A model generated the notes under the pieces. The model searched no databases. It had not been told where the DNA came from and was given only the letters and a program-made list of their open reading frames with translations. Shown here piece after piece: positions 1,809 to 12,115 of a stretch of 29,077 bases of DNA. This DNA comes from a virus: positions 1 to 29,077 of IMG/VR virus record IMGVR_UViG_3300023180_000290; one strand, given 5' to 3'. A program made the translations under genes and the position numbers. The first letter of the stretch is position 1. Every line of letters starts with the position of its first letter.

Positions 1809-1860
1809 GGGGCGCGGCCTGAAGCTCTTGCGTTACGAACCTTACGAAGAAACCCTGGAA
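1809..1860 (+). repeat. Dispersed element: GC box, TTACGAA-N15-CTGGAA
   Basis: GGGGCGCGGC (1809-1818), 14 bases, TTACGAA (1833-1839), exactly 15 bases, CTGGAA (1855-1860). An extra TTACGAA sits at 1842-1848. CTGGAA ends two bases before the TGTCAGACC box of the plus-strand promoter. It is one of eleven units with identical internal spacing between 1809 and 12115. Confidence 0.8.
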
Positions 1861-1862
1861 AT

Positions 1863-1884
1863 TGTCAGACCCATATGGTATGTT
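1863..1884 (+). promoter_or_regulatory. TGTCAGACC-type promoter with extended -10
   Basis: TGTCAGACC (1863-1871), CATA, TGG, TATGTT (1879-1884). The predicted transcript starts near 1891, giving a 22-base leader with GAAGGGAA before the GTG at 1913. The -35 position is occupied by CTGGAA of the dispersed element rather than TTGACA. Confidence 0.5.
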
Positions 1885-1912
1885 CATGGCATCAACCAAC
1901 GAAGGGAACAAA

Positions 1913-2080
1913 GTGAACTACAACGTCACCACCACGCTAGACCGCAAGTACGGGCACGCCCCACACTTCATGGAAGACCCCTACACCGAAGAGCGTCATG
2001 GGTGCCTGTACCTCGTGTCCCGGGGTGAGTTTAAAACCGCTATCCGCCTTGACGGTATCGTAGACGTAGAGGAGGCATAG
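1913..2080 (+). CDS. Small hypothetical protein (55 aa)
   Basis: The GTG at 1913 is chosen because GAAGGGAAC precedes it and because the region aligns with the leader of the next gene, which has the same promoter-to-start layout. The protein starts MNYNVTTTLDRKYGHAP and ends GIVDVEEA. No motif is recognised. An ATG at 1886 in the same frame would lie upstream of the predicted transcription start. It is followed after five bases by the next GC box. Confidence 0.5.
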   Translation: MNYNVTTTLDRKYGHAPHFMEDPYTEERHGCLYLVSRGEFKTAIRLDGIVDVEEA

Positions 2081-2085
2081 GCAGC

Positions 2086-2136
2086 GGGGCGCGGCCCTTC
2101 AGCTCGTGTTACGAAGCTTTAAGAATTACCCTGGAA
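2086..2136 (+). repeat. Dispersed element: GC box, TTACGAA-N15-CTGGAA
   Basis: GGGGCGCGGC (2086-2095), 13 bases, TTACGAA (2109-2115), 15 bases, CTGGAA (2131-2136). CTGGAA directly abuts the TGTCAGAGG box of the following promoter. The whole element fits between the stop of one small gene and the promoter of the next. Confidence 0.8.
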
Positions 2137-2158
2137 TGTCAGAGGGGTGTGGTATGGT
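2137..2158 (+). promoter_or_regulatory. TGTCAGA-type promoter with extended -10
   Basis: TGTCAGAGG, GGTG, TGG, TATGGT (2153-2158). Spacing is identical to 1863-1884. The predicted start near 2165 leaves a short leader with GAGAGGAC ahead of the ATG at 2187. Confidence 0.45.
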
Positions 2159-2186
2159 TTGGCTACCAACAACGAGAGGACACCTC

Positions 2187-2318
2187 ATGGCCCGATGCGA
2201 AGACTACCCCTGCTGCGGTCACACCGATGGCCTTGGCTGCAACTACGTCCCTGACATGGACTACTACTATGCCCGTGCTGCTCGCATGGACTATGACGAC
2301 TACTATGACGAGCCGTGA
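2187..2318 (+). CDS. Small Cys/Tyr/Asp-rich protein (43 aa)
   Basis: A 43-residue protein beginning MARCEDYPCCGHTDGLGC, with four Cys and one His in the first 18 residues, followed by a Tyr/Asp-rich tail (DYYYARAARMDYDDYYDEP). The Cys/His cluster suggests a metal-binding knuckle. CxDYPCCGH-type short proteins occur in many actinobacteriophages, but their role is unknown. GAGAGGAC supports the start; longer in-frame readings would overlap the upstream promoter. Confidence 0.65.
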   Translation: MARCEDYPCCGHTDGLGCNYVPDMDYYYARAARMDYDDYYDEP

Positions 2319-2321
2319 GGG

Positions 2322-2372
2322 GCCGCGCCCCCGTTACCACCTTGTTACGAACCTTTAAGAATTACCCTGGAA
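2322..2372 (+). repeat. Dispersed element: GC box, TTACGAA-N15-CTGGAA
   Basis: GCCGCGCCCC (2322-2331; the box is inverted relative to 1809), 13 bases, TTACGAA (2345-2351), 15 bases, CTGGAA (2367-2372). The stretch from TTACGAA to CTGGAA is almost identical to the copy at 2109-2136. Unlike the others, no clear gene follows: 2373-2517 contains only ORFs under 20 codons and an inverted pair TAGCACT/AGTGCTA (2444-2450, 2474-2480). Confidence 0.75.
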
Positions 2373-2496
2373 TATTCCAAGAAAAAATGAGCAGTTTGTT
2401 CTCATGCTCAGGAGATGTGGTAGCAGTTTATCTTGTCAAGACGTAGCACTCTGATTCGATTCTGCTTTTACCTAGTGCTAGACCACGCAAAACCCC

Positions 2497-2508
2497 TATT
2501 TATTTATT
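2497..2508. repeat. TATTTATTTATT at a convergent gene junction
   Basis: The tetranucleotide repeat TATTTATTTATT lies ten bases from the end of the minus-strand gene at 2518. A similar TTTATTTATTTATTTTAT lies at the other plus/minus convergent junction (12236-12253). The shared position suggests a role in transcription termination, but no stem accompanies it. This is inference from position only. Confidence 0.35.
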
Positions 2509-2517
2509 GTGAGAGTG

Positions 2518-2655
2518 TTAGACGGTTGTAAACCTTTCCATACCGTCCACATCAAGCCGAAGGACGTAGCCGAACGGCTTTTCGATAATCTCCTGCACAA
2601 CTCCCGTCACGCCAGACTTGGCGGTGGTGTAGGTGTCTCCAACTGTGATCTGCAT
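2518..2655 (-). CDS. Small beta-rich hypothetical protein (45 aa)
   Basis: The start at 2655 (MQITVGDTYTTAKSG) follows AAAGGTAACATT and a good promoter at 2684-2712. The sequence VGDTYTT..SGVTGVVQEI resembles the opening strands of small SH3/KOW-like barrels that recur in phage proteins, but it is too short to be sure. It ends near the convergent junction. Confidence 0.6.
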   Translation of the reverse strand: MQITVGDTYTTAKSGVTGVVQEIIEKPFGYVLRLDVDGMERFTTV

Positions 2656-2683
2656 AATGTTACCTTTCGTTGTTGTTATTAGA

Positions 2684-2712
2684 ACCTTATCATGGTGGGG
2701 GCACAGAGTCAA
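2684..2712 (-). promoter_or_regulatory. Sigma-70-like promoter
   Basis: On the minus strand TTGACT (2712-2707), a 17-base spacer ending in TGA, and TAAGGT (2689-2684), an extended -10. The predicted start is near 2677, giving a leader of about 22 bases with AAAGG before the ATG at 2655. Confidence 0.6.
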
Positions 2713-2740
2713 GTCATATACCCCCACCGTTATCAAACTG

Positions 2741-3256
2741 TTACCAGGAAGAAGAGTAATAAAATGAAGTAAAGTTACCGTCGTGCGTATCTTGGGGGTA
2801 CAGGGTGAGAATATTGTTGATCATATAAACTGTCTTTTTGATATCTGCCATGTACCAATCATCATAGTCATAGGAGCCAAAGAAGAAACCCTGCGTGGGT
2901 GCTAGACCTTCCCTCTCTGCCACATCTTCCAAAACATGACCCACAGGAAGCATGAGCACGCTATTACATGCGGCACGCAACGCAATCAGTTTCTCACGGG
3001 ACACAAAGTATTGCCCACAATCATCTACGCCATTTTGCACATTCTCAACGAACCAACCATGAATGGCATTAGCCTTACGCCAATACCCTACGGGAAAGAC
3101 TAACTGAATACCCGCAAAGTCTGAGTAGTCATCAAAGCCCTCGGGGGCGTACTTGGCAATCGCGGCATATCTGTCTGTCACGACAGGCTCATGATCTGGG
3201 GTGTAAGAATACTTACTTACATATTGGCGTGCTTCTAAATACTGATCTAGTCCCAT
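2741..3256 (-). CDS. Conserved phage protein of the MGLDxYL family (171 aa)
   Basis: Starts MGLDQYLEARQYVSK after GGAGAGATGGAATA; an upstream in-frame ATG lacks a ribosome-binding site and overlaps the previous gene. The protein has the recognisable pattern GYWRKANAIHGWFV...GVDDCGQYFVS...L..AC..VL that recurs in many phage hypothetical proteins. The conserved Trp, His, Asp and Cys residues suggest a folded enzyme or binding domain, but no activity is established to my knowledge. The C-terminus is Tyr/Ser-rich (FYYSSSW). Confidence 0.8.
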   Translation of the reverse strand: MGLDQYLEARQYVSKYSYTPDHEPVVTDRYAAIAKYAPEGFDDYSDFAGIQLVFPVGYWRKANAIHGWFVENVQNGVDDCGQYFVSREKLIALRAACNSVLMLPVGHVLEDVAEREGLAPTQGFFFGSYDYDDWYMADIKKTVYMINNILTLYPQDTHDGNFTSFYYSSSW

Positions 3257-3408
3257 TATTCCATCTCTCCAGCGTAGGTTACTGATTTGATTACACATTC
3301 TGTTAGGACAACATTGGCGGTATCCAATGCGTCATCCTCTGTTTCTGCATACACCCCGAACTCAATGCCAGGGATGTTAGTTTTGATCACCCATTCTTTG
3401 TCAACCAT
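3256..3408 (-). CDS. Small DpnD/PcfM-like protein (50 aa)
   Basis: The start at 3408 (MVDKEWVIKT) follows GGGAGGGTGG. The pattern of a strand, then AETEDDALDTANVVL, resembles small proteins of the DpnD/PcfM style, where a two-strand beta unit is followed by an ExxALxxA helix. Two further genes in the window, at 6963-7151 and 10253-10459, have the same pattern. Its start overlaps the stop of the next gene by one base. Function unknown. Confidence 0.6.
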   Translation of the reverse strand: MVDKEWVIKTNIPGIEFGVYAETEDDALDTANVVLTECVIKSVTYAGEME

Positions 3409-3437
3409 TGTTCCACCCTCCCTTTGATCAAAACCTA

Positions 3438-3650
3438 TCACACTTCGGCAAGATTGTCAACAACCACGAGAGGAATTTTTTTATCCTCCTGTACCTCAAT
3501 CTTTGCCCGATCTCCATTCTTATCTACAAGGTAGAAGAAAAAGCTATCGGGAGCCTGATCAGAGATATCGTAGATCTTGTAGATCTCGCCCTGAAGCATG
3601 ATCTCATCGTGAACCTCCAGGCAGTACGCCTCCATGAGAACAGTCTTCAT
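3438..3650 (-). CDS. Hypothetical protein (70 aa)
   Basis: The start at 3650 (MKTVLMEAYCLEVHDEIML) overlaps the upstream stop as ATGA, indicating coupling. The sequence LEVHDEIMLQGEIYKIYDI...FFFYLVDKNGDRAKIEV is beta-rich, like a small SH3-type or transcription-elongation-like barrel. No catalytic motif is seen. Confidence 0.6.
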   Translation of the reverse strand: MKTVLMEAYCLEVHDEIMLQGEIYKIYDISDQAPDSFFFYLVDKNGDRAKIEVQEDKKIPLVVVDNLAEV

Positions 3651-3841
3651 GCTACATTCACCCATTCCATGCAAGTACGCAGAAGATTGTCATAGTCGCC
3701 AGACATGGCCTCATCTTGGAAGGCAATAACGTCTGACTTTTCGCCCCCTGCCTCACGGATGCCCTTTGACACCTTGCTCATGATAGCAAAGGCATTGCCG
3801 TCTGTGCCCGTCAGTTGCACATTCACATCGAACTTAGCCAT
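3647..3841 (-). CDS. Conserved small phage protein (64 aa)
   Basis: Begins MAKFDVNVQLTGTDGNAFAI after GGGAGGTCAGAA. The layout VQLTGxDGNAFAI..V......AG, then EAMSGDYDNLLRTCMEWV, is a pattern I recognise from many phage genomes, annotated as hypothetical. Beta strand then helix, soluble. It overlaps the leaderless basic gene upstream by eight bases. Confidence 0.75.
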   Translation of the reverse strand: MAKFDVNVQLTGTDGNAFAIMSKVSKGIREAGGEKSDVIAFQDEAMSGDYDNLLRTCMEWVNVA

Positions 3842-3965
3842 TTCTGACCTCCCTTTTCCATTCCCGCTTTTCACGGGTTCGAATAATCTTAGCAGACTCA
3901 CGGGGGTAGCAGCAATAGCATCCCCTGTGTCCATTTCTTGCAATGTTTCTATTTGATCTAATCAT
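3834..3965 (-). CDS. Leaderless small basic protein with a CxxC-like knuckle (43 aa)
   Basis: A 43-residue, very basic protein: MIRSNRNIARNGHRG, then CYCCYP, then an Arg/Lys-rich helix (TREKREWKREV). Similar short basic proteins with a CxCC motif are common near early promoters in actinobacteriophages. The ATG coincides with the predicted transcription start (the -10 TAGAGT ends six bases upstream), so the mRNA is probably leaderless and no ribosome-binding site is visible. It may bind nucleic acid; this is inferred from charge. Confidence 0.6.
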   Translation of the reverse strand: MIRSNRNIARNGHRGCYCCYPRESAKIIRTREKREWKREVRNG

Positions 3966-3971
3966 GGCTTG

Positions 3972-4000
3972 ACTCTAGCATACCACTATGACATTGTAAA
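3972..4000 (-). promoter_or_regulatory. Leaderless-type promoter
   Basis: On the minus strand TTTACA (4000-3995), a 17-base spacer containing TGTCATAGT and ending in TGC, then TAGAGT (3977-3972). Six bases separate the -10 from the ATG at 3965, so the transcript should start on the A of the ATG. The TGTCA...N4-TGN-TANNNT spacing matches the TGTCAGACC promoters. Confidence 0.65.
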
Positions 4001-4008
4001 GCCCACTT

Positions 4009-4048
4009 GATAACAGAATGATAACAGGATGGTTACAGGATGGTTGCA
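4009..4048. repeat. Three to four tandem 11-bp iterons between divergent promoters
   Basis: GATAACAGAAT (4009-4019), GATAACAGGAT (4020-4030), GGTTACAGGAT (4031-4041), followed by a partial GGTTGCAG (4042-4049). The 11-base period places each copy on the same face of the helix. They lie between the minus promoter at 3972-4000 and the plus promoter at 4087-4115, and end at the GC box at 4049. A cooperative regulator binding site is likely by position; the protein is unknown. Confidence 0.6.
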
Positions 4049-4101
4049 GCCGCGCCCCGCCGTTATCATATCGTTACGAACACCCCTTGACATTCCTGGA
4101 A
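4049..4101 (+). repeat. Dispersed element: GC box, TTACGAA-N15-CTGGAA
   Basis: GCCGCGCCCC (4049-4058), 15 bases, TTACGAA (4074-4080), 15 bases, CTGGAA (4096-4101). Here CTGGAA is part of the palindrome TTCCTGGAA and lies inside the -35/-10 spacer of the promoter at 4087-4115, where a bound protein would block polymerase. Confidence 0.8.
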
Positions 4102-4115
4102 TATTAGGATAGATT
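4087..4115 (+). promoter_or_regulatory. Leaderless-type sigma-70 promoter
   Basis: TTGACA (4087-4092), a 17-base spacer, TAGATT (4110-4115). The ATG at 4122 is exactly six bases after the -10, so the transcript should begin at the start codon. The spacer holds the TTCCTGGAA palindrome of the dispersed element. Confidence 0.7.
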
Positions 4116-4121
4116 ATCATC

Positions 4122-4256
4122 ATGAATAGTTCACGACGTAGCAATGGTCATCAGCGTAGGGTCATGGACCTGCGACGCAGCAATGCTGCACAGCCTCACA
4201 AGAATAAGTCTAAGTATTCCCGCAAGCGCAAGCACGCTAGCAAGGGGTGGCAATGA
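4122..4256 (+). CDS. Leaderless small basic protein (44 aa)
   Basis: First gene of the long plus-strand block. The 44 residues are strongly basic: MNSSRRSNGHQRRVMDLRRS at the start and KNKSKYSRKRKHASKGWQ at the end, with no acidic residue except one Asp. No ribosome-binding site precedes the ATG, consistent with the promoter placing the transcription start on it. Possibly a nucleic-acid-binding or charge-neutralising peptide. It overlaps the next gene (ATGA). Confidence 0.6.
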   Translation: MNSSRRSNGHQRRVMDLRRSNAAQPHKNKSKYSRKRKHASKGWQ

Positions 4257-4327
4257 TGGAATTTCTTACTTATGTAGGGGTAGTTATATTTCTATTCCTT
4301 GGCCTCATGTTTATTCTTGACAAATAA
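4253..4327 (+). CDS. Single-pass membrane peptide (24 aa)
   Basis: A 24-residue peptide, MMEFLTYVGVVIFLFLGLMF followed by ILDK: nearly all hydrophobic, one transmembrane helix. It overlaps the basic gene by four bases, and its last codons contain the -35 of the next promoter (TTGACA at 4317-4322). Short hydrophobic peptides in this position may be accessory lysis or regulatory proteins, but there is no evidence of that here. Confidence 0.5.
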   Translation: MMEFLTYVGVVIFLFLGLMFILDK

Positions 4328-4345
4328 TCTCTACTCTGATAGGTT
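4317..4345 (+). promoter_or_regulatory. Leaderless-type promoter with extended -10
   Basis: TTGACA (4317-4322), a 17-base spacer ending in TGA, TAGGTT (4340-4345). Six bases then lead to the ATG at 4352. The -35 is inside the coding sequence of the 24-residue membrane peptide. No dispersed element accompanies it. Confidence 0.7.
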
Positions 4346-4351
4346 TCTCTC

Positions 4352-4906
4352 ATGACAAATATTACTGACACCCTTACCCCCGCCACCGACACCATCGCCG
4401 CCTACAACTTCTTTGTGTTGCAAGCCACGCTAGGTCAAGTAGAGCAAGCCTCTGTGTGGTATCACGAGGCACAAGAGGTAGCCGAAGATGTTGCAGAGTT
4501 GCTAGAAAAGTCATTAGAGGTCGGTGCGTCTGTCGTTAGCGCATTCTCTCCCCGTGAGCGTTGGTCATCTAATGTTGCTAAGGCTTTCGCATTTGCTAGT
4601 GGCAAGCCTGTCACGGGTCTGACTAACAATCTCAAAATGGCAAACAAGGCACTAGAACTAGGCTTTGACGCACTGAAAGGTGACAAGACTAACGCCTTTG
4701 CTCGTGCTATTGCAGGCGATACTAACGCGGTAGTCATAGATACATGGATGATAAAGGCCGCAGGCATGGACTCATCTAAGGGTGTAAATAAAACACAATA
4801 CCGTGAACTCACTGACGCGGTTCGCGTTGTTTCATTTGACCACGGTCTAACTCCCCGTACATGTCAAGCCCTTATCTGGATTGTGAAGCGAGGTAGTGCA
4901 CAATAA
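4352..4906 (+). CDS. Conserved actinophage protein, helical (184 aa)
   Basis: A 184-residue protein with the conserved core VSAFSPRERWSSNVAKAFAF...KPVTGLTNNLKMANKAL..GFDALKGDKTNAFARAIAGD..AVVIDTWM...AGM...QYRELTDAVR...GLTPRTCQALIWI. I recognise this pattern from many actinobacteriophage proteins of unknown function. The order of small helices, the K-x-NAFA segment and a following Asp are reminiscent of helix-hairpin-helix DNA glycosylases, but that resemblance is speculative. The ATG coincides with the predicted transcription start. It overlaps the next gene by one base. Confidence 0.8.
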   Translation: MTNITDTLTPATDTIAAYNFFVLQATLGQVEQASVWYHEAQEVAEDVAELLEKSLEVGASVVSAFSPRERWSSNVAKAFAFASGKPVTGLTNNLKMANKALELGFDALKGDKTNAFARAIAGDTNAVVIDTWMIKAAGMDSSKGVNKTQYRELTDAVRVVSFDHGLTPRTCQALIWIVKRGSAQ

Positions 4907-5037
4907 TGGAACACATTGATCAAGCACCTATCAAACCACTATTGCAATATAAATACCTATGTCAAGAGTGTGGCGACATAGTTACCCTGACAGAATCTAA
5001 ATACCTTTTTGATGTTCGATGTAAATGGTGTGGGTGA
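4906..5037 (+). CDS. Zinc-ribbon protein (43 aa)
   Basis: A 43-residue protein starting on the overlapping TAATG of the previous gene. Two knuckles, CQEC (about residue 19) and CKWC (about residue 39), separated by 17 residues, make a classical minimal zinc ribbon. The last residues are CG. Likely nucleic-acid or protein binding; partner unknown. Confidence 0.65.
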   Translation: MEHIDQAPIKPLLQYKYLCQECGDIVTLTESKYLFDVRCKWCG

Positions 5038-5043
5038 GCTAGG

Positions 5044-5093
5044 GCCGCGCCCCGCGACCCCTCTTTTACGAAGCGAAGTAGGAATTCCTGGAA
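5044..5093 (+). repeat. Dispersed element: GC box, TTACGAA-N15-CTGGAA
   Basis: GCCGCGCCCC (5044-5053), 12 bases, TTACGAA (5066-5072), 15 bases, CTGGAA (5088-5093) within TTCCTGGAA. It begins seven bases after a stop codon and ends 18 bases before the -35 of the DUF932 promoter. Confidence 0.8.
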
Positions 5094-5111
5094 ATTTCTG
5101 TCTTAAAACTC

Positions 5112-5141
5112 TTGACAAGTGTCAGACCTAACTGATAAAGT
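5112..5141 (+). promoter_or_regulatory. Promoter with both TTGACA and TGTCAGACC
   Basis: TTGACA (5112-5117), AG, TGTCAGACC (5120-5128), TAAC, TGA, TAAAGT (5136-5141). This copy combines a perfect -35 with the TGTCAGACC box and extended -10, so it is probably the strongest of the family. It drives the DUF932 gene through a leader of about 27 bases with TTAGGAGAA. Confidence 0.7.
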
Positions 5142-5174
5142 AGGCACATCAAATCAACTAGTTAGGAGAAACAC

Positions 5175-6170: not shown

Positions 6171-6178
6171 TAAAATAT

Positions 6179-6202
6179 CCTGGGCATGATATAAAACTGC
6201 CC
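6179..6202. repeat. Hairpin repeat upstream of tRNA-Asp
   Basis: CCTGGGCATGATATAAAACT then GCCC: GGGCA (6182-6186) can pair with TGCCC (6198-6202), followed by TTT. A second copy with three differences lies at 6329-6352, so the pair flanks the tRNA. Possible terminators or processing sites. Confidence 0.5.
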
Positions 6203-6205
6203 TTT

Positions 6206-6278
6206 GGCCCTGTAGAGCAGCGGAGTGCTCGCCACCCTGTCACGGTGGAGGCCGTGGGTTCAAATCCCATCAGGGTCG
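6206..6278 (+). tRNA. tRNA-Asp(GTC)
   Basis: A complete cloverleaf: acceptor GGCCCTG pairs with CAGGGTC (one G-T), D arm, anticodon stem CCACC/GGTGG with loop CTGTCAC giving anticodon GTC, and T arm GTGGG-TTCAAAT-CCCAT. The discriminator base is G and no CCA is encoded. Flanked by two copies of a GGGCA/TGCCC hairpin. Confidence 0.93.
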
Positions 6279-6328
6279 CGGTTAGTGGAAGGAGGCATCT
6301 AGGCAGATGCGATCACCAAAACCACAGT

Positions 6329-6352: not shown

Positions 6353-6361
6353 AACCCCTGC

Positions 6362-6440
6362 GGGGCGCGGTGAAGGAAGCTCTTTTACGAACGCGCCCCC
6401 AAATTCCTGGATTTACGAAGGACCAAAAATATTCCTGGAA
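6362..6440 (+). repeat. Two tandem copies of the dispersed element
   Basis: First unit: GGGGCGCGG (6362-6370), TTACGAA (6385-6391), 15 bases, CTGGAT (6407-6412). Second unit: CGCGCCCC (6392-6399), TTACGAA (6413-6419), 15 bases, CTGGAA (6435-6440) within TTCCTGGAA. The second GC box starts immediately after the first TTACGAA, so the two units interlock with a 28-base offset. The promoter -35 follows four bases later. Confidence 0.8.
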
Positions 6441-6444
6441 ACTC

Positions 6445-6473: not shown

Positions 6474-6502
6474 CAGGTCTATCAACTAGTGAAGGGTATG
6501 TC

Positions 6503-6961
6503 ATGGAAACAACTGATTATATTTCTACCCCCGATCTTACCACCAAGCCCAATGCTAATTATGGCGAACTGGTAGATTTTTGGAATAAGGGTAATGCCAA
6601 GATTTCTCAACTGGAGGAATCTGCACAAATCCGTGAGAATATTCTTTCTAAGTCTTTAGAGAAGAGTAGATTACAGGAAGCATATATTGATAACTTCATG
6701 GAAGCCCTTGTCGAATACATCAGGAGTAATGATATAGATAAAGAGGTTGCCGCTGATCTTGCTGGTTGCTTTAATCGTGATCTGACTCGCAAGGTATATG
6801 GTCGTATTCGTATTGAGGGTGATGTGGAACTTGTTATCCCCCTTGATCTTGACCTAGATAACATTGCCCAGGAACTTGACATTCACATTGGCGAAGCATA
6901 TACTTCCGATGTAAAGGTAGAATACAGCGACGTTTCTGAGGTAGAGGTAAAGGAGAACTAA
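6503..6961 (+). CDS. Hypothetical protein with a helical N-terminal half (152 aa)
   Basis: A 152-residue acidic protein. Residues about 20-70 are helix-forming and may make a short coiled coil (KISQLEESAQIRENILSKSL); the C-terminal half is beta-like and acidic (GDVELVIPLDLDLDN, then EVEVKEN). It is the first gene of a ten-gene run. I do not recognise the family. Confidence 0.75.
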   Translation: METTDYISTPDLTTKPNANYGELVDFWNKGNAKISQLEESAQIRENILSKSLEKSRLQEAYIDNFMEALVEYIRSNDIDKEVAADLAGCFNRDLTRKVYGRIRIEGDVELVIPLDLDLDNIAQELDIHIGEAYTSDVKVEYSDVSEVEVKEN

Positions 6962-6962
6962 G

Positions 6963-7151
6963 ATGAATACATATGAGGTAGAGGTACAAGGTCATTACTG
7001 TGCCGTGATGGTGGTGGAAGCGTCTTCCCCCGAAGAGGCAGAGAATGAGGCTATCAGGGCTTTTGAGTCTGACTATGATGTTTGCGACCGCTCGGGTGCC
7101 GACTCCTGGGATCACACTTCTATCGTTTCTTCTGAATTGGTGGTGGACTAA
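6963..7151 (+). CDS. Small DpnD/PcfM-like protein (62 aa)
   Basis: MNTYEVEVQGHYCAVMVVEA is followed by SSPEEAENEAIRAF: a two-strand unit and then an S-x-EEAxxxA helix, as in small DpnD/PcfM-type domains. It is similar in layout to the genes at 3256-3408 and 10253-10459. It starts one base after the previous stop. Function unknown. Confidence 0.65.
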   Translation: MNTYEVEVQGHYCAVMVVEASSPEEAENEAIRAFESDYDVCDRSGADSWDHTSIVSSELVVD

Positions 7152-7153
7152 AG

Positions 7154-7375
7154 ATGGAGTTTCACTATACAGTTATGTATAACACCGACAGCAAAGCATG
7201 GTCGGTAGAACCTGATTCTTACATGTATTATCCAGATGGTCATATGTATGACGAGGGAGTATGGCCTGGTTGGTCTGTACCCATGGAGGGTAGTCCAGAG
7301 GAAGCACTTGACGTAGACTTGCTTCATACACTAAAATCCATTGTTTGTACCTTTCCCGTACCCCAGGAGGAATAA
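7154..7375 (+). CDS. Hypothetical protein (73 aa)
   Basis: A 73-residue protein rich in Tyr, Trp, Met and Pro (MEFHYTVMYNTDSKAWSVEP, then YYPDGHMYDEGVWPGW). The opening strand plus a Trp/Pro-rich loop is typical of small phage beta proteins. Its stop overlaps the next ATG (TAATG), and GGAGG near its end serves the next gene. Confidence 0.6.
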   Translation: MEFHYTVMYNTDSKAWSVEPDSYMYYPDGHMYDEGVWPGWSVPMEGSPEEALDVDLLHTLKSIVCTFPVPQEE

Positions 7376-7662
7376 TGCATAACGGTAGAGTTCTAGACCA
7401 TGATGGTGAGATGTATGTGTCCATGGAGGACTATCTGAACATGATGATTGACAAGGTTACTGCTCTTGGCATGGAACTAGATGTTTACATGGATGACTTC
7501 ACACCCGAACAGTATCAAACTAATGTAGACTTCATCAAGGGGTTTACTGCTGCAACACGAATGCTGGCGGTTGATCTTGCGTCCTTGACAGATGACCCTA
7601 ATCGTAGTAGATTCTTCCATGCACTTGCAGACAAGATGGTAGATATCCAGGAGGCATCATGA
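7375..7662 (+). CDS. Hypothetical helical protein (95 aa)
   Basis: The start at 7375 follows CAGGAGGAATA and overlaps the previous stop, preferable to an in-frame upstream ATG at 7345 inside that gene. The protein is mostly helical: MHNGRVLDHDGEMYVSMEDY, then a long Met-rich segment, then GFTAATRMLAVDLASL. No motif is recognised. It overlaps the next gene by four bases. Confidence 0.65.
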   Translation: MHNGRVLDHDGEMYVSMEDYLNMMIDKVTALGMELDVYMDDFTPEQYQTNVDFIKGFTAATRMLAVDLASLTDDPNRSRFFHALADKMVDIQEAS

Positions 7663-7874
7663 CCCAACTACCCGAACGTATCAACGTTATTAGGACTGTT
7701 ACTTATCATGTACCGTCGATTATTCAGGACATGAATCAGAATAATATAGAATGGTTGCCACAAGATGTGAACGATGTTCTAGAATTCATTGAGGATTGGG
7801 TGTATGAGGATATGTCTGCACCACCTTCCCGTCATGATCTTGTTTATCAAGATGAGAATGGGAATGAACTGTGA
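7659..7874 (+). CDS. Hypothetical protein (71 aa)
   Basis: A 71-residue acidic protein beginning MTQLPERINVIRTVTYHVPS, with NNIEWLPQDVNDVLEFIEDWV in the middle. Coupled to the previous gene by ATGA and to the next by GTGA. Unknown function. Confidence 0.6.
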   Translation: MTQLPERINVIRTVTYHVPSIIQDMNQNNIEWLPQDVNDVLEFIEDWVYEDMSAPPSRHDLVYQDENGNEL

Positions 7875-8074
7875 TCAAACTATATGAGATTGATTGGGGA
7901 GCAGAGCCTTTCTATTGGGACGTATATGATTCACAAGATGAATTCTTGATGGTAGTTGAGGCAGATGAATTTGATGACTACCTTGACACCCTGCGGTATG
8001 ATGGTGTAGACTTCCTGGTCTACACGCAAGACTGGTATCAACACAATCTAGCCCTAGGAGGCGCAGTATCGTGA
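7871..8074 (+). CDS. Acidic hypothetical protein (67 aa)
   Basis: Starts with GTG overlapping the previous stop by four bases. The 67 residues are acidic and aromatic (MIKLYEIDWGAEPFYWDVYD). GGAGGCGC near its end is the ribosome-binding site of the next gene. No domain is recognised. Confidence 0.6.
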   Translation: MIKLYEIDWGAEPFYWDVYDSQDEFLMVVEADEFDDYLDTLRYDGVDFLVYTQDWYQHNLALGGAVS

Positions 8075-8415
8075 AGTCTCATGTTTACTGGAATCTGCAC
8101 AAGAATATCTGGTCTATTAGACAGGATGGAAGGGTGACACAACACAGAGACTTTGTGGTTCTGGAAGATGTTTCCTTTCATGTGCAGCCAGCAGGCCGTG
8201 AGCGTGTCAGGAAAGAGGGCAAAAAGAATGTCCATGCCTACGCCTCTGGTAACTTTACCTATGATAAGCCCAAGGGTTGGTCAAAGGGTAGGCAGATAAC
8301 CTACAACCCATACAAGTTTGATTCGTTTGTCTATGCAGATGACTTGACTCCCGTTCATCACTCTGGTAGGGTTGCTATGTTTGATCGTAAGGTCTATGAA
8401 TTGGAGAAAGCATGA
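8071..8415 (+). CDS. Conserved phage protein of unknown function (114 aa)
   Basis: Starts with GTG (MKSHVYWNLHKNIWSIRQ) after AGGAGGC. The pattern HVYWNLHKxxWSIR...V..HRDFVVLEDVSFHVQPAGRERV..EGKKNVHAYASG recurs across many bacteriophages and plasmids as a hypothetical protein. The positively charged, aromatic N-terminal half suggests a nucleic-acid-binding beta domain, but this is only inference. Confidence 0.8.
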   Translation: MKSHVYWNLHKNIWSIRQDGRVTQHRDFVVLEDVSFHVQPAGRERVRKEGKKNVHAYASGNFTYDKPKGWSKGRQITYNPYKFDSFVYADDLTPVHHSGRVAMFDRKVYELEKA

Positions 8416-8855
8416 GTGCATGGGAAGTGCCACACGCCACTATTCATACCCTGGCGTATTGGATCACTAAAGAAGGAATTAGCAAGCAGTCACCGCAAGC
8501 CGTGGGGCAGCAGTTGGTTGCAGAGAACTTTCGCAGTCTGCGTGCTCGCTATGGAGTAAAGCCGTGGGGTGATATTCCCAGGAAGGCTCCAAGGTACAAG
8601 TACCGTGACCCGCAGCCGTTCAAGACTATTCGCAGCAACTATGACCCCTACAACCCTGAACAAGTTTATTTAGATACTCGCTTCCATGACTATCAGTCTT
8701 GTGAGCACAGAGAATACATGGGTGCGCCTGACAAGAATTGGACGGTAGAGAACTGGGTCAATAAGTTGGGTGAAGTCATGGTTGACAAATATGGTGTAGA
8801 CAAGGATAATGTATCTAGCATTGACAACTCAGAACTATGCTGGGGAGCGTACTAA
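8412..8855 (+). CDS. Hypothetical protein (147 aa)
   Basis: A 147-residue protein rich in Trp, Tyr and Pro, with a helical N-terminus (HTLAYWITKEGISKQSPQAV), a basic middle (RKAPRYKYRDPQPFKT) and a region with YQSCEHREYMG. I recognise no catalytic motif. It overlaps its neighbours by four bases and one base. Confidence 0.7.
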   Translation: MSAWEVPHATIHTLAYWITKEGISKQSPQAVGQQLVAENFRSLRARYGVKPWGDIPRKAPRYKYRDPQPFKTIRSNYDPYNPEQVYLDTRFHDYQSCEHREYMGAPDKNWTVENWVNKLGEVMVDKYGVDKDNVSSIDNSELCWGAY

Positions 8856-9133
8856 TGACTACTGACTATTGGACATTCCGACCCGCCAAGCGGCCCAAGG
8901 TTGCACAGGTTAGCCGTTGGGACAAGTTGTATGAGAATTGGAACACTACCTGGAAGGGTCAAGAGGTGTGGGCCATGGTGGAGGGTGGCTATCCCTTCCC
9001 TGACTTTTTCCGTGTTACCTATGCAATAGATGGAATAAGAAAGTCTAAACTATTTTATGGCGAGACTGCCCACAATGATGTTGAGCGTTTCGTCTATGAT
9101 GTAGGACTATTTGATGTATTGGGGAAGATATAA
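8855..9133 (+). CDS. Hypothetical protein (92 aa)
   Basis: The start at 8855 (MTTDYWTFRPAKRPK) overlaps the previous stop as TAATG and is preferred to an upstream TTG-type start inside the previous gene. The protein is aromatic and basic at the N-terminus, with WDKLYENWNTTWKGQEVWAM. No family is recognised. It shares one base with the next gene. Confidence 0.65.
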   Translation: MTTDYWTFRPAKRPKVAQVSRWDKLYENWNTTWKGQEVWAMVEGGYPFPDFFRVTYAIDGIRKSKLFYGETAHNDVERFVYDVGLFDVLGKI

Positions 9134-9417
9134 TGATTGATGATATCAAGCAGGGCAAGTATGACAATGATCTGGACACGATTGCTAAGGCTGTTCAGGC
9201 TCGCAAGCAGGCTCTACTCCCTCAGATTTGGGAGTTTTCTGTTGGTGATCTTGTTCAACTAAATGGGAATACCCGACCTAAGTACCTACAAGGCAAGCAG
9301 GCAAAGGTAGTCAAGGTAAACAGGACAAAGATTGTTGTCGATATAGATGGTATAGAATATCCTTCCAAGTATTCAGGGAATGTCACTGTCCCCCTTGAAT
9401 TGGTAGACAAGATTTAG
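9133..9417 (+). CDS. KOW/SH3-like small protein (94 aa)
   Basis: Residues 1-35 are helical; residues about 36-94 contain FSVGDLVQLNGNTRPKYLQG, then QAKVVKVNRTKIVVDI. The pattern of GDxV, RPKYLxGxxAxVxKVNxxKxxV is shared by many phage small proteins and resembles a KOW or SH3-like barrel that binds nucleic acid. It ends eight bases before tRNA-Ile. Confidence 0.75.
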   Translation: MIDDIKQGKYDNDLDTIAKAVQARKQALLPQIWEFSVGDLVQLNGNTRPKYLQGKQAKVVKVNRTKIVVDIDGIEYPSKYSGNVTVPLELVDKI

Positions 9418-9424
9418 ACAGTGG

Positions 9425-9498
9425 TGGGAGGTAGCTCAGACGGTTAGAGCACCAGTCTTATAAGCTGGCGGTCGTGGGTTCAAGTCCCACCCTCCCAA
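9425..9498 (+). tRNA. tRNA-Ile(TAT)
   Basis: A complete cloverleaf: acceptor TGGGAGG pairs with CCTCCCA, T at position 8, D arm AGCTCAGACGGTTAGAGC, anticodon stem CCAGT/GCTGG (one T-G) with loop CTTATAA giving anticodon TAT, T arm GTGGG-TTCAAGT-CCCAC, discriminator A, no encoded CCA. It reads ATA, a rare codon in high-GC actinobacteria but frequent in the nearby gene at 11549-12076. Confidence 0.93.
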
Positions 9499-9503
9499 CG
9501 GCA

Positions 9504-9554
9504 GCCGCGCCCCCCAAATCCCTCTTTTACGAACACTTGATATTTTTCCTGGGA
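9504..9554 (+). repeat. Dispersed element: GC box, TTACGAA-N15-CTGGGA
   Basis: GCCGCGCCCC (9504-9513), 13 bases, TTACGAA (9527-9533), 15 bases, CTGGGA (9549-9554, one change). The last part sits in the spacer of the promoter at 9537-9565, as at 4049-4101. Confidence 0.75.
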
Positions 9555-9565
9555 TCTGATAGGGT
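9537..9565 (+). promoter_or_regulatory. Promoter with extended -10
   Basis: TTGATA (9537-9542), a 17-base spacer ending in TGA, TAGGGT (9560-9565). The predicted start is near 9572, and GGATGGAG precedes the ATG at 9595. CTGGGA of the dispersed element lies in the spacer. Confidence 0.6.
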
Positions 9566-9594
9566 ATGTCTAACAACTAATGGATGGAGTGGTT

Positions 9595-10260
9595 ATGCCT
9601 AACTGGGTCTACAACAGTTTACATGCCTACGGCAGCGACGCTGACCTTGACAGGTTGCAAGAGTTCCTGCGTGTGGAAATCAGGATCAACAAATGGGATA
9701 AAGAGACAAGGACTGATTACTATGAGATTGAGCCTGTTGAGTTTACATACATGGCTATTCGTAATCCCTTTCTTCCCCCCTACAATGTTAGTCAAGATGA
9801 ATACTATGGCACTAATGGAACTATCAACGGTGAGCGTGTTGGTGATACCGCTGGCAACTGGTACAACTGGAACGTTACTCATTGGGGCGTGAAGTGGGAC
9901 GCTTGTAGGGTAGACATGGAGAGGTGTCCAGACGGAGAGGGCAGAGGGCAACTCACTTATCATTTTGAGTCCCCGTGGGGGCCACCGTGGGTTGAGATGT
10001 TGTTGGAATTGTCAGAGAAGTTCCCTGAACTTGGCTTTAGTCATCGCTACGATGAAGAGCAGGGCTGGGGTGGAGACTATGAATTCCGCAACGGAGAAGT
10101 AACTGCCTGGGAAGAATGGGATATTCCAGAAAGCCATGCAGAGCACAAGGCAGTAGATCAAAGTTGTCCGTGTGAAATGTGGACAGATGAGCCGGAAACG
10201 TGGTATGATGACTGCCCTCCAAAGATTGAGCACAATGCTAAGGAGTTAGCAAATGCATAA
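9595..10260 (+). CDS. YubB/Api92-like (DUF1281) protein (221 aa)
   Basis: The start at 9595 (MPNWVYNSLHAYG) is chosen because the family characteristically begins MPNWxxN and GGATGGAG precedes it. The protein has L..L..FL early, then NWYNWNVTHWGVKWDACRV and SPWGPPWVEMLLELSEKFPEL, the ferredoxin-like pattern of YubB/Api92 proteins from phages and plasmids. Their function is unknown. The C-terminus contains CPCEMW and a Trp/Asp-rich stretch. It overlaps the next gene by eight bases. Confidence 0.85.
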   Translation: MPNWVYNSLHAYGSDADLDRLQEFLRVEIRINKWDKETRTDYYEIEPVEFTYMAIRNPFLPPYNVSQDEYYGTNGTINGERVGDTAGNWYNWNVTHWGVKWDACRVDMERCPDGEGRGQLTYHFESPWGPPWVEMLLELSEKFPELGFSHRYDEEQGWGGDYEFRNGEVTAWEEWDIPESHAEHKAVDQSCPCEMWTDEPETWYDDCPPKIEHNAKELANA

Positions 10261-10459
10261 CTATTTAGTTAATTATCGTACATACTCTGAGTGGCAAGTA
10301 TCTATTGCTGCTGAAAGTGAAGAGCAAGCCAAGGAACTAATTGGAAACTCTGCTACCCCGACTTCCTACATAACAGATGGGGAAGGTTTCGATTCCGAGC
10401 CTCATTGGTTCCTGTCCGATGTTGATTGGGATTCCATTGATGTTTTAGAAACCGAATAA
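10253..10459 (+). CDS. Small DpnD/PcfM-like protein (68 aa)
   Basis: Starts MHNYLVNYRTYSEWQVSIAA, then ESEEQAKELI: strand, strand, S/E-EEAK helix, the same layout as the 62-residue protein at 6963 and the 50-residue protein at 3256. It overlaps the upstream gene by eight bases. Probably a small beta-beta-alpha domain of unknown role. Confidence 0.65.
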   Translation: MHNYLVNYRTYSEWQVSIAAESEEQAKELIGNSATPTSYITDGEGFDSEPHWFLSDVDWDSIDVLETE

Positions 10460-10476
10460 GTTTCTACCCGAAACAC

Positions 10477-10506
10477 TTGACAAGCGGGTAGACAATACAA
10501 TAGAAT
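10477..10506 (+). promoter_or_regulatory. Sigma-70-like promoter
   Basis: TTGACA (10477-10482), an 18-base spacer, TAGAAT (10501-10506). The predicted start is near 10513, with AAAGGAGAAAG before the ATG at 10544. No TTACGAA element is present here. Confidence 0.65.
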
Positions 10507-10543
10507 ATCACCTGTAAGTAATTACTACACAAAGGAGAAAGAT

Positions 10544-10702
10544 ATGTCAAAGCGCAACAACAAGAACACCTACGCCTACCTGGAGAAGTGGGACACCCGC
10601 TTCGGTTCGTCTGATCGCGTTGTGATCCGCAGCCAGGGACGCTTCGTGGACAATGTTTCGCTTACTGCTCTGCGGAAGGCTCCCAAGATCTCTTCCAAGT
10701 AG
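10544..10702 (+). CDS. Small basic protein (52 aa)
   Basis: A 52-residue basic protein, MSKRNNKNTYAYLEKWDTRF at the start and LRKAPKISSK at the end, with a strong AAAGGAGAAAG site. Codon use is G/C-ending and resembles that of the DUF932 gene, suggesting high expression. It has its own promoter and a downstream hairpin. Function unknown. Confidence 0.65.
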   Translation: MSKRNNKNTYAYLEKWDTRFGSSDRVVIRSQGRFVDNVSLTALRKAPKISSK

Positions 10703-10716
10703 GAGAGGCATCATCT

Positions 10717-10744
10717 GGGGGTCGGCCTTGATGGTTCGGCCCCC
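10717..10744 (+). terminator. Hairpin after the 52-residue gene
   Basis: GGGGGTCGG pairs with TCGGCCCCC-type sequence (10717-10725 with 10736-10744; two G-T pairs). The stem is strong but is not followed by a run of T, so it could be a terminator that needs no U tract, as is common in actinobacteria, or an mRNA-stabilising hairpin. Confidence 0.45.
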
Positions 10745-10775
10745 TTGGTGTATCATCTACTTAGGAGGTGGGTCT

Positions 10776-11024
10776 ATGGCAACATGGATAAATGCCAAGT
10801 CTATTGCATACAAGTTGATAGACATATTCGCAGACAATCGGGTAATGCCAAGTGAATGGAAATATCAGATACCGCTATTCATTGTGCAGCAACCCCAGCA
10901 GGTAGTATGGAATGCAAGAAACCTAGCAGACGGGATAGATCACAACATGGAACTCTATGATGTGGAAATACCTGCCGACAAGGTAGCGTTCGACCCATAC
11001 AGCAAAGACTATCTGCTAGACTAA
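10776..11024 (+). CDS. Hypothetical protein (82 aa)
   Basis: The start at 10776 follows TTAGGAGGTGGG. The 82-residue protein reads MATWINAKSIAYKLIDIFAD, then YQIPLFIVQQPQQVVWNARN and a C-terminal DYLLD. No motif is recognised. It lies between two strong hairpins. Confidence 0.65.
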   Translation: MATWINAKSIAYKLIDIFADNRVMPSEWKYQIPLFIVQQPQQVVWNARNLADGIDHNMELYDVEIPADKVAFDPYSKDYLLD

Positions 11025-11033
11025 CAATAGAGT

Positions 11034-11063
11034 GTCCCCCACGGAGTATGGGCCGTGGGGGGC
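11034..11063 (+). terminator. Perfect GC-rich hairpin
   Basis: CCCCCACGG (11036-11044) pairs perfectly with CCGTGGGGG (11053-11061) around an 8-base loop, with extra pairs outside. The next gene's ribosome-binding site follows within 10 bases, so it could be an intrinsic terminator without a U tract or a structure that modulates that gene's translation. Confidence 0.5.
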
Positions 11064-11082
11064 ATTCACCAGGGGAGTAATA

Positions 11083-11295
11083 ATGGTGATGGTAACAGCA
11101 AGAGGAACAGCAGGGGTGTCAGTAGAAATTGGCCCCATAGATCTAGATATGCTCAACAAGCAATACATACAACTAATCAAGTTGATAGAGCATGATGAAG
11201 ATCATGAATTGTGGGGAGTGGCTATGATGATTAATGATATTCTGTGGGAGTCAAATTTGGACTCGTCTTGCTCTTGTGGATTCCCCTTCGGGTGA
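11083..11295 (+). CDS. Hypothetical protein (70 aa)
   Basis: The ATG at 11083 follows AGGGGAGTAATA; a longer in-frame reading would run through the hairpin. The 70-residue protein starts MVMVTARGTAGVSVEIGPID and ends DSSCSCGFPFG, an unusual Cys/Phe/Gly tail. The last codons overlap a small TTCCCCTTCGGG-type hairpin. Function unknown. Confidence 0.55.
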   Translation: MVMVTARGTAGVSVEIGPIDLDMLNKQYIQLIKLIEHDEDHELWGVAMMINDILWESNLDSSCSCGFPFG

Positions 11296-11306
11296 GGCTG
11301 AAGGGC

Positions 11307-11419
11307 GGGGCGCGGCACCCCAAATAGAACTATTACGAAGAATGTTCAAAATTCCTGGAAAGTTCTACGCGCCCCAATATACAAAAGGGTATTACGAAGG
11401 ACTTGTAAAAATGCTGGAA
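11307..11419 (+). repeat. Two tandem copies of the dispersed element
   Basis: First unit: GGGGCGCGGC (11307-11316), 16 bases, TTACGAA (11333-11339), 15 bases, CTGGAA (11355-11360) within TTCCTGGAA. Second unit: CGCGCCCC (11368-11375), 16 bases, TTACGAA (11392-11398), 15 bases, CTGGAA (11414-11419). The second CTGGAA lies in the spacer of the promoter at 11403-11431. Confidence 0.8.
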
Positions 11420-11431
11420 AGCTGGTAGAAT
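11403..11431 (+). promoter_or_regulatory. Promoter with extended -10
   Basis: TTGTAA (11403-11408), a 17-base spacer ending in TGG, TAGAAT (11426-11431). The predicted start is near 11438, giving a leader of about ten bases containing GGGAGG before the ATG at 11448. CTGGAA occupies the spacer. Confidence 0.6.
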
Positions 11432-11447
11432 TTGCTAGGGAGGATAT

Positions 11448-11552
11448 ATGCAAAAAGGCGATGATATTATTACTACATTTATAGCAGGCGCGTTATTCTT
11501 TTTTCTATTTATTATTACGATGGTGCTTAGTTTATCCTGGGCCTTTTCATGA
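11448..11552 (+). CDS. Single-pass membrane peptide (34 aa)
   Basis: A 34-residue protein, MQKGDDIITTFIAG followed by about 18 hydrophobic residues, probably one transmembrane helix with a short cytoplasmic N-terminus. It has a GGGAGG site and overlaps the following Ntn-hydrolase gene by four bases (ATGA). The pairing suggests co-expression, but no role is known. Confidence 0.55.
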   Translation: MQKGDDIITTFIAGALFFFLFIITMVLSLSWAFS

Positions 11553-12076
11553 CTTGTATAGTAGCTATAGTATCAGAGGGTAAGGTATATATAGGAGGGG
11601 AAAGAGGACATAGTGATAGTCATACTATTGTTTCTTCTACCCGCCCAAAAATATTTGAATGTGGTCCATACCTTGTAGGATATGCTGGTAATAGTGGTAT
11701 AGGTCAAGCTGTTGTATATAATTTTGAATTCCCCGCCGTTGGCAAAACTAATAATATAGATAGACATATGGGCCAGGTATTTATACCAAGACTAAGATCA
11801 TTCTTTATAGATAATAATATAAAACTACCAGAAGATGATGATCAAAATGCATCATTTATTGTAGGGGTAAGAGGCAGGGTATACGAAGTAGACCTCTCTG
11901 ATTTCCAATGTATAGAATATAGTGAAATAGCAATAGGATCAGGGTCTTCATATGCCTATGGTGCTCTATATATTAATAAGGATTACGAACCCCTTGATAG
12001 AATTCGCCAGGGTATAGAAGCAGCCATACTATATTCCCCTACATGTACTGGCCCTATAGATGTATTATCAAAATAG
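11549..12076 (+). CDS. Proteasome-like Ntn hydrolase (175 aa)
   Basis: Starts MTCIVAIVSEGKVYIGGERG, the characteristic opening of phage and bacterial proteasome-subunit-like (HslV/20S beta-type) Ntn hydrolases. After Met removal Thr1 would be the N-terminal nucleophile, Glu17 sits where Asp17 is usual and Lys33 (in TRPKIF) matches the catalytic lysine. Further family features are the GYAGNSGIGQ segment, near residue 45, and AIGSGSSYAYGALY, near residue 131. The substrate is unknown. The gene is AT-rich with most Ile codons ATA, unlike the DUF932 gene, pointing to a separate origin. Confidence 0.85.
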   Translation: MTCIVAIVSEGKVYIGGERGHSDSHTIVSSTRPKIFECGPYLVGYAGNSGIGQAVVYNFEFPAVGKTNNIDRHMGQVFIPRLRSFFIDNNIKLPEDDDQNASFIVGVRGRVYEVDLSDFQCIEYSEIAIGSGSSYAYGALYINKDYEPLDRIRQGIEAAILYSPTCTGPIDVLSK

Positions 12077-12087
12077 CTCAAAAAGTA

Positions 12088-12115
12088 TTACGAATGAGCT
12101 AAAAACATGCTGGAA
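12088..12115 (+). repeat. TTACGAA-N15-CTGGAA without a GC box
   Basis: TTACGAA (12088-12094), 15 bases, CTGGAA (12110-12115), eleven bases after the Ntn-hydrolase stop. No GC box precedes it and no plus-strand gene follows; the 12116-12244 gap shows no ORF I support. A relic or a terminal copy of the dispersed element. Confidence 0.6.

What the first reader, a model, noticed from the sequence alone, without database searches (positions are those of the whole stretch)
1809..12115. Rigid three-part intergenic element: GC box, TTACGAA-N15-CTGGAA
Eleven units with exactly 15 bases between TTACGAA and CTGGAA (TTACGAA starts at 1833, 2109, 2345, 4074, 5066, 6385, 6413, 9527, 11333, 11392, 12088; one ends CTGGAT and one CTGGGA). 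Ten have GGGGCGCGGC or its complement 12-16 bases upstream. All point the same way, all are intergenic, and the minus-strand block right of 12245 has none. Their distance to the -10 varies (5 to 42 bases), so they are not simply promoters. CTGGAA is often part of the palindrome TTCCTGGAA and in three cases lies in the promoter spacer, which suggests an operator or an activator site. It is functionally comparable to start-associated repeats of some mycobacteriophages but has a different sequence.
Basis: seen in the sequence. Interest (0 to 1): 0.8.

Follow-up and report, generated by a model that had tools for sequence, protein, structure and literature searches.

The report
Helix-phased early-gene control site in phages
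A family of bacterial viruses carries a repeated three-part DNA signal in front of many of its small early genes, set close to whole turns of the DNA helix from the predicted promoter, which suggests a common, still unidentified regulator of early infection.

Summary
The element is real: nine exact TTACGAA-N15-CTGGAA copies lie on the + strand, none on the other. The window is a 29-kb uncultured phage record, distantly related to cultured Streptomyces phages.

In 74 relatives the generic site occurs 152 times forward and 0 reverse; Markov-resampled copies give 0-1. TTACGAA is the most strand-biased intergenic heptamer tested (345 vs 34). The second half and the upstream GC box differ by lineage; the GC box occurs in both orientations.

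The distance to the predicted -35 is not free: it clusters near 11, 31, 44 and 54 bp, about one helical turn apart. Other upstream words are phased as well, so the site is one part of a phased region.

Best reading: binding site of a dedicated regulator, probably an activator, of early transcription units; repressor/stoperator action is the main rival. Copies in convergent gaps mostly lack a good promoter and are unexplained. The regulator is not identified; WhiB and a ~50-residue phage helix-turn-helix protein are leads.

The parts
140..190 (+). divergent unit: GC box (140-149, GCCGCGCCCC), TTACGAA at 163, tandem TTACGAA, then TTCCCGAA; DnaA-box-like 9-mer at 130; followed by minus-strand genes
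1809..1860 (+). unit: GC box 1809-1818, TTACGAA 1833, CTGGAA; DnaA-box-like TTATCCACA at 1797; divergent junction
2086..2136 (+). unit: GC box 2086-2095, TTACGAA 2109, CTGGAA
2322..2372 (+). unit: GC box 2322-2331 (reverse orientation), TTACGAA 2345, CTGGAA; convergent junction
4049..4101 (+). unit: GC box 4049-4058 (reverse), TTACGAA 4074, TTCCTGGAA in the promoter spacer
4087..4115 (+). predicted promoter TTGACA-N17-TAGATT, 13 bp from TTACGAA
5044..5093 (+). unit: GC box 5044-5053 (reverse), TTACGAA 5066, TTCCTGGAA; upstream of the DUF932 gene
5112..5141 (+). predicted promoter TTGACA-N18-TAAAGT, 46 bp from TTACGAA
5175..6170 (+). DUF932 gene (331 aa), used to find relatives
6362..6412 (+). 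unit: GC box core 6362-6369, TTACGAA 6385, CTGGAT
6392..6440 (+). unit: GC box core 6392-6399 (reverse), TTACGAA 6413, TTCCTGGAA
6445..6473 (+). predicted promoter TTGACA-N17-TAGGAT, 32 bp from the nearer TTACGAA; leads a run of closely packed predicted genes 6503-9417
9504..9554 (+). unit: GC box 9504-9513 (reverse), TTACGAA 9527, CTGGGA; just after tRNA-Ile; -35 TTGATA 10 bp from TTACGAA
11307..11360 (+). unit: GC box 11307-11316, TTACGAA 11333, TTCCTGGAA
11368..11419 (+). unit: GC box core 11368-11375 (reverse), TTACGAA 11392, CTGGAA in the promoter spacer
11403..11431 (+). predicted promoter TTGTAA-N17-TAGAAT, 11 bp from TTACGAA
12088..12115 (+). unit without GC box: TTACGAA 12088, CTGGAA; after the last predicted rightward gene, before the minus-strand block

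Best explanation
Each unit is an asymmetric, two-box binding site for one sequence-specific regulator of the phage's early transcription units. One box is the conserved TTACGAW. The other, about two helical turns downstream and so on the same face, is lineage-specific (TTCCTGGAA here). The site tends to be set a whole number of helical turns from the -35 of the gene it serves, so a bound protein would meet RNA polymerase on a fixed face: at about 11 bp the two boxes straddle the -35, at 31-56 bp the site lies upstream. I think it most likely activates these promoters. The GC box is a separate, orientation-independent, lineage-specific site 12-16 bp further upstream. Shown: the sequence pattern, its strand bias, conservation, lineage variation and the phasing to predicted promoters. 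Inferred: that one protein reads both boxes, that it activates, and what the GC box does. The protein is unknown.
For: Phasing: independent junction-by-distance sets give Rayleigh R at 10.5 bp of 0.381 (n 68), 0.489 (n 53) and 0.692 (n 34) as the promoter-score cut rises, 0 of 5000 uniform draws reaching each. Without the 11-bp class p is 0.0124, 0.001 and 0.0006 with one promoter per gene and 0.029 with all promoters. It holds separately in tandem gaps (n 65, R 0.643) and divergent gaps (n 10, R 0.754, p 0.001). DUF932 orthologues show 11, 31-33, 42-48 and 53-56 bp. Location: median 84 nt before the next same-direction gene in tandem gaps and 83 in divergent ones; best promoter scores there have medians 8.4 and 9.9 against 7.0 in convergent gaps. 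In the two large relatives profiled (G004, G016) sites concentrate in a block on its coding strand. The second box is kept in 36 of 44 sites even where it straddles the -35. In the cultured relative Karimac, 8 of 15 GC-box sites between 1.1 and 10.1 kb are followed by AAAARATCTT and then a promoter-like sequence read by eye.
Against: Convergent gaps carry the site at least as often as tandem gaps (42 of 73 vs 184 of 436), yet none of 27 has a promoter scoring 9 or more within 64 bp; an activator does not explain these. At the looser cut of 7 even the convergent set looks phased (n 10, R 0.572, p 0.035; above 15 bp n 8, R 0.936), so part of the phasing may not depend on real promoters. Other upstream hexamers are phased too: median R 0.34 for 70 of them with TTACGA 4th, median 0.29 for 76 with TTACGA about 6th. 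Some gene groups scatter (27, 31, 37; or 55-92). In the window the promoter at 46 bp fits a 10.5-bp ladder poorly. Promoters are predicted, none mapped. Sites overlapping the -35 (18-25 bp) are few (9), but the scan is biased against them. No trans factor is identified.
Confidence: 0.48

Rival explanations
1. Repressor operator or stoperator: a protein binds each site to shut off early promoters or block read-through between units, like the cluster A mycobacteriophage repressor.
For: Sites are asymmetric, oriented with transcription and also occur after the last gene of a unit, mostly without a good promoter. At about 11 bp the two boxes straddle the -35. The cluster A repressor is a monomer with two DNA-binding domains on one face, its second domain the more variable (PMC9283540, passages), as the second box is here.
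Against: Helical phasing out to five turns is not needed for a roadblock. No repressor family appears among the Pfam families shown for the scanned proteins (searches showed 25 of 72 and 25 of 50 families; two searches showed all), a limited test.
Confidence: 0.26
2. Genome-end, replication or packaging signal: arrays mark the end of the terminal repeat and the promoter-linked copies are secondary.
For: Karimac's reverse-strand TTACGAW copies lie in the ~0.9-kb noncoding end of its terminal repeat. Convergent gaps in relatives carry several copies each (120 elements in 42 gaps). DnaA-box-like 9-mers flank two units in the window.
Against: More copies lie in tandem and divergent gaps (298 of 450 counted) than in convergent ones, with promoters in phase. 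DnaA-like boxes are at only two of twelve window units.
Confidence: 0.13
3. Shuffling cassette: a mobile promoter-bearing intergenic unit that lets genes recombine, like the PeSL cassettes of T4-type phages.
For: Units stand between changing small genes; Karimac adds a GC hairpin before the GC box, read by eye. At the junction of window unit 2109 the GC box is reversed in L001.
Against: Spacer sequence varies between copies while box spacing is fixed, which points to binding rather than homology.
Confidence: 0.08
4. Chance or compositional artefact.
For: Individual boxes are short.
Against: 152 forward and 0 reverse generic matches in relatives against 0-1 in eight Markov resamplings of them.
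Confidence: 0.01

Closest known systems
Cluster A mycobacteriophage stoperators (L5, TipsytheTRex; PMC9283540, passages seen)
   Same: Many asymmetric sites; the cluster O paper passages say they are oriented with transcription; one protein reads two parts on one face, one domain more variable.
   Different: 13-bp consensus in successive major grooves; here the boxes are about two turns apart, phased with predicted promoters, with a GC box; no repressor found in the limited scan.
Start-associated sequences and extended SAS of cluster K (PMC3203893, passages)
   Same: Repeated sites, almost all in one orientation, before small genes of an actinophage.
   Different: Tied to translation starts, with 17-bp imperfect inverted repeats in the extended form; here far upstream and asymmetric.
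17-bp repeats of cluster O (PMC4351075, passages)
   Same: More than 30 copies, many intergenic, function unknown.
   Different: Dyad-symmetric, about a third within genes, most not near promoters, no meaningful orientation.
PeSL promoter/stem-loop cassettes of T4-like phages (mentioned in PMC4503421, passages; original papers not read)
   Same: Intergenic unit with an early promoter in a gene-shuffling region.
   Different: No stem-loop was tested systematically in the window family; the core here is a bipartite site.
Lambda CII and phage 186 CII activators (recalled, no call)
   Same: Two half-sites on one face flanking the -35, or two turns apart.
   Different: Few sites per genome; whether these phages encode a CII relative was not searched for specifically.

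Membership tests
Start-associated sequence (cluster K) | site next to the translation start | tested here: not met
   median 84 nt (IQR 59-124) before the next gene in tandem gaps
Start-associated sequence (cluster K) | extended form is a 17-bp inverted repeat | tested here: not met
   302 non-redundant elements, aligned on TTACGAW, show an asymmetric two-box profile
Cluster A stoperator | asymmetric, oriented with transcription, intergenic | tested here: met
   345 vs 34 strand bias in intergenic DNA; 152 forward, 0 reverse
Cluster A stoperator | 13-bp contiguous consensus | tested here: not met
   two boxes separated by N13-N15
Cluster A stoperator | two-domain immunity repressor encoded by the phage | tested here: inconclusive
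   none among the Pfam families shown (two of these lists were cut at 25); the window is a fragment and only one relative's proteins were scanned widely
Cluster O 17-bp repeat | dyad symmetry TGTTCGG-N3-CCGAACA | tested here: not met
   profile is asymmetric
PeSL cassette | early promoter plus stem-loop in one unit | tested here: inconclusive
   predicted promoter in tandem and divergent gaps; hairpin seen by eye in Karimac gaps, not scored in the window family
OmpR/MtrA-type direct-repeat site | 5-6-nt direct repeats about 11 bp apart | tested here: inconclusive
   35 occurrences of TTAHGA at +9 to +13 among 302 elements; MtrA consensus in PMC5650626 passages
Sigma-A promoter | the two boxes are the -35 and -10 themselves | tested here: not met
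   separate -35/-10 pairs are predicted at varying phased distances; not mapped experimentally

The most novel reading that the evidence does not exclude
A family-wide early-gene code: one conserved anchor box plus two boxes that diverge lineage by lineage, read by a regulator that co-evolves with them (a small phage helix-turn-helix protein is one candidate), so that each lineage switches on its own early promoters and could discriminate against co-infecting relatives.
Probability: 0.12. Interest if true: 0.82.

Novelty: new variant of a known kind. Interest (0 to 1): 0.6.

Why it matters
The early genes in the long terminal repeats of these actinophages are nearly all of unknown function, and I found nothing on how they are switched on. 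A site found before many of them, shared by dozens of uncultured phages and echoed in cultured Streptomyces phages, makes their control testable in the laboratory. The split between one frozen box and two drifting ones offers a natural experiment on how a regulator and its sites co-evolve. Ten searches of a 5.4-million-paper library showed no description of it in the titles and abstract openings listed, which are capped lists; most subscription papers are not in that library.

Tried and rejected
Host factor: a relaxed pattern (one mismatch allowed) is not clearly in excess in the Actinomycetota MAG that holds a relative's contig (5 vs 2 control hits in 1.3 Mb), nor in a second MAG with a relative (19 vs 22) or a third (0 vs 0); the host itself is a guess, since such contigs may be misbinned. 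MtrA/OmpR direct repeats: some 11-bp repetition, too weak to file. Lsr2: PF11774 hits 0 of 15 records and misses Karimac's own annotated Lsr2-like gene, so the test is insensitive. WhiB: in 16 of 18 uncultured phage contigs, Karimac and one MAG; the two misses are contigs of 28 and 42 kb. It is common in actinophages at large (PMC8612146, passages), and I know of no WhiB acting several turns upstream of the -35 (recalled), so it is a candidate only. phrog_3636: 8 of 15. Rfam: only the two tRNAs.

Phage helix-turn-helix protein (about 50 aa): 16 of 20 records and 12 of 45 (six records are in both, many are fragments, three hits are weak). Its recognition helix varies by lineage. The link with the second box is loose: phages with VETIYVYLAK-type helices mostly have CCC-type boxes, but only 9 of the 20 boxes shown for the four VQLIYRQLKK phages are TCGCC; L019, with a divergent protein, has ATCGTGG six times. 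All this follows phylogeny, so it is a lead and not a test. No such protein was found for L001 or L002, the window's nearest relatives. A search with the window's DUF932 in genome contigs found no relative; the profile search did. The bare heptamer gave 1,505 papers, the 40 listed looking irrelevant.

Rows dropped: one search used 500 of 505 elements (short flanks); one search used 302 of 500 after removing near-duplicates; one search used 169 of 1675 predicted promoters (235 had a site within 100 bp, 169 of them a downstream gene); one search aligned 96 of the 116 proteins listed; one search showed at most 12 boxes per phage and only those fitting its pattern. Relatives include near-identical contigs. 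Gene calls come from a home-made coding score and are approximate. On checking, I lowered the best explanation from 0.50 to 0.48 and the novel reading from 0.15 to 0.12 because of the phased convergent set and the looser box-helix link, and raised two rivals by 0.01 each.
Full report
OBSERVATION. Exact TTACGAA-N15-CTGGAA occurs nine times forward and never in reverse in 29 kb; spacing N15 accounts for 9 of the 10 TTACGAA...CTGGAA pairs at spacings 5-29. The 74 relatives have 10 exact and 152 generic matches, all forward; eight Markov resamplings of them have 0 exact and 0-1 generic. A further control, 78 mostly actinobacterial genome loci with none, is weak because of its 68% G+C and because the loci were fetched by distant DUF932 similarity. 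All 11 copies of the GC-box core in the window precede a TTACGAA. A twelfth, divergent unit is at 163. Two one-mismatch matches lie in the minus-strand block.

WHAT IT SITS IN. The window is a virus record of 29,077 bases. Among named phages the DUF932 protein finds Streptomyces phages such as BoomerJR and Yaboi best (55%), and the terminase finds Francob and Gilson (58%) and then others including Karimac (55%). Karimac and Yaboi are Stanwilliamsviridae. In the listed Streptomyces phages the DUF932 gene mostly occurs twice per record near the ends, that is, in a direct terminal repeat (about 11 kb in cluster BE1, PMC5764925, abstract and passages). That the window's rightward block is a terminal repeat is inference. 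Many of the conserved protein families listed around DUF932 are small and acidic; the domain scan showed 25 of 50 families.

THE FAMILY. A scan of viral contigs gave 74 relatives. In their DNA outside reading frames of 100 codons or more, TTACGAA is the most strand-asymmetric heptamer among those seen at least 60 times, 345 against 34. In 302 non-redundant elements the profile is TTACGAW, an A/T-rich spacer, C-rich positions 21-23 (62, 71 and 55% C) and R, A, A at 25-27. TTCCTGGAA is the window's version; relatives have TTCCCGAAA, ATCGCC, TTTCACCGGG, ATCGTGG and others. The GC box also changes: forms with GCGCCCC, CCGGCCC, CCCGAGC, GCCGACC or GCCCGCC; where it is frequent both orientations are about equally common (5/6 in L041, 4/4 in L042, 5/5 in L051), but L070 is 7/1 and several phages show no clear box. 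Nearest relative L001 keeps TTACGAW at 9 of 10 comparable window units and lacks it at 9527. At unit 2109 L001 has the GC box reversed although the DNA that follows is 96% identical.

PHASING. For each relative I predicted sigma-A-type promoters and measured TTACGAW to -35. Pooled, 196 distances give a best period of 10.7 bp. Grouping downstream genes by similarity and counting each distinct distance once gives R 0.381, 0.489 and 0.692 as promoter quality rises, none of 5000 uniform draws reaching these. With one promoter per gene and the 11-bp class left out, p is 0.0124, 0.001 and 0.0006; with all promoters 0.029. With a separate gene call, tandem gaps give R 0.643 (n 65) and divergent gaps R 0.754 (n 10, p 0.001). 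DUF932 orthologues fall at 11, 31-33, 42-48 and 53-56 bp; the proteasome-like gene at 11-12, 20, 29-30 and 39, a slightly shorter step; some other groups scatter. Cautions: 70 common hexamers have median R 0.34 and TTACGA ranks 4th; ATAACA and A/T-rich words are phased too, so the whole upstream region is phased and this site is one part of it. Weak promoter calls in convergent gaps also look phased in a small set (n 8). In the window the five clear distances are 10, 11, 13, 32 and 46; 46 fits poorly.

TWO CLASSES OF SITE. Sites occur in 184 of 436 tandem, 18 of 53 divergent, 42 of 73 convergent and 25 of 130 leftward gaps in the stretch searched. Before same-direction genes the best promoter scores have medians 8.4 and 9.9; in convergent gaps 7.0, none of 27 reaching 9 within 64 bp. 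Window units 2345 and 12088 are of the convergent kind; Karimac's TTACGAW copies on its early strand lie in the noncoding genome end. They may be roadblocks, end signals or remnants; I cannot tell.

MECHANISM. Both boxes and the -35 fall on about one helical face. At 11 bp, the commonest class, the second box lies inside the promoter spacer and is kept in 36 of 44 cases, so the bipartite site seems to matter there as well. This resembles, from memory only, activators such as lambda CII whose half-sites flank the -35. A repressor could use the same geometry. I put activation at 0.48 and repression or stoperator action at 0.26.

TRANS FACTOR. Not identified. Widespread DNA-binding candidates are WhiB (16 of 18 uncultured phage contigs and Karimac) and a small helix-turn-helix protein (16 of 20 records). 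The latter's recognition helix varies by lineage and loosely follows the second box, but so might any protein, since the lineages differ throughout.

KNOWN KINDS. Compared with start-associated sequences, stoperators, cluster O repeats and PeSL cassettes, it shares orientation and intergenic repetition with some but fails or leaves open a defining feature of each (membership table; papers seen as passages). Two papers on the cultured relatives contain no occurrence of 'intergenic', 'promoter' or 'motif' (PMC5764925, PMC13191466, term searches). It is best called a new variant of a known kind: a phage early regulatory site.

Noticed in passing
window 25738-26766 (minus strand): IMP dehydrogenase/GMP reductase domain gene in a phage, matching the whole profile (Pfam PF00478, E 8.1e-92).
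   Followed up: no
window 11549-12076: Proteasome/HslV-like peptidase gene at the end of the early block, its orthologues preceded by phased units.
   Followed up: partly
window 130 and 1797 (also 25154): DnaA-box-like TTATCCACA 9-mers immediately before the GC boxes of two units; similar pairing is visible in L001 and L002.
   Followed up: no
intergenic DNA of L001-L074: A second strand-biased motif, ATGTCAG (342 vs 71), lies in the spacer of many of the listed predicted promoters.
   Followed up: partly
window 2388 and 6330: Short imperfect stem-loop repeats (TGAGCA...TGCTCA type) beside two units, also in L001.
   Followed up: no
L075 and L076 (Karimac, Yaboi terminal repeats): Cultured phages have a GC box CCGCCCCGG in either orientation (2 of 15 reversed in Karimac), often a GC hairpin before it, AAAARATCTT after 8 of 15, then promoter-like sequence before early genes.
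   Followed up: partly
window 18281-19642 (minus strand): HAD hydrolase joined to a nucleotidyltransferase domain in one 453-residue protein.
   Followed up: no
   Followed up: partly
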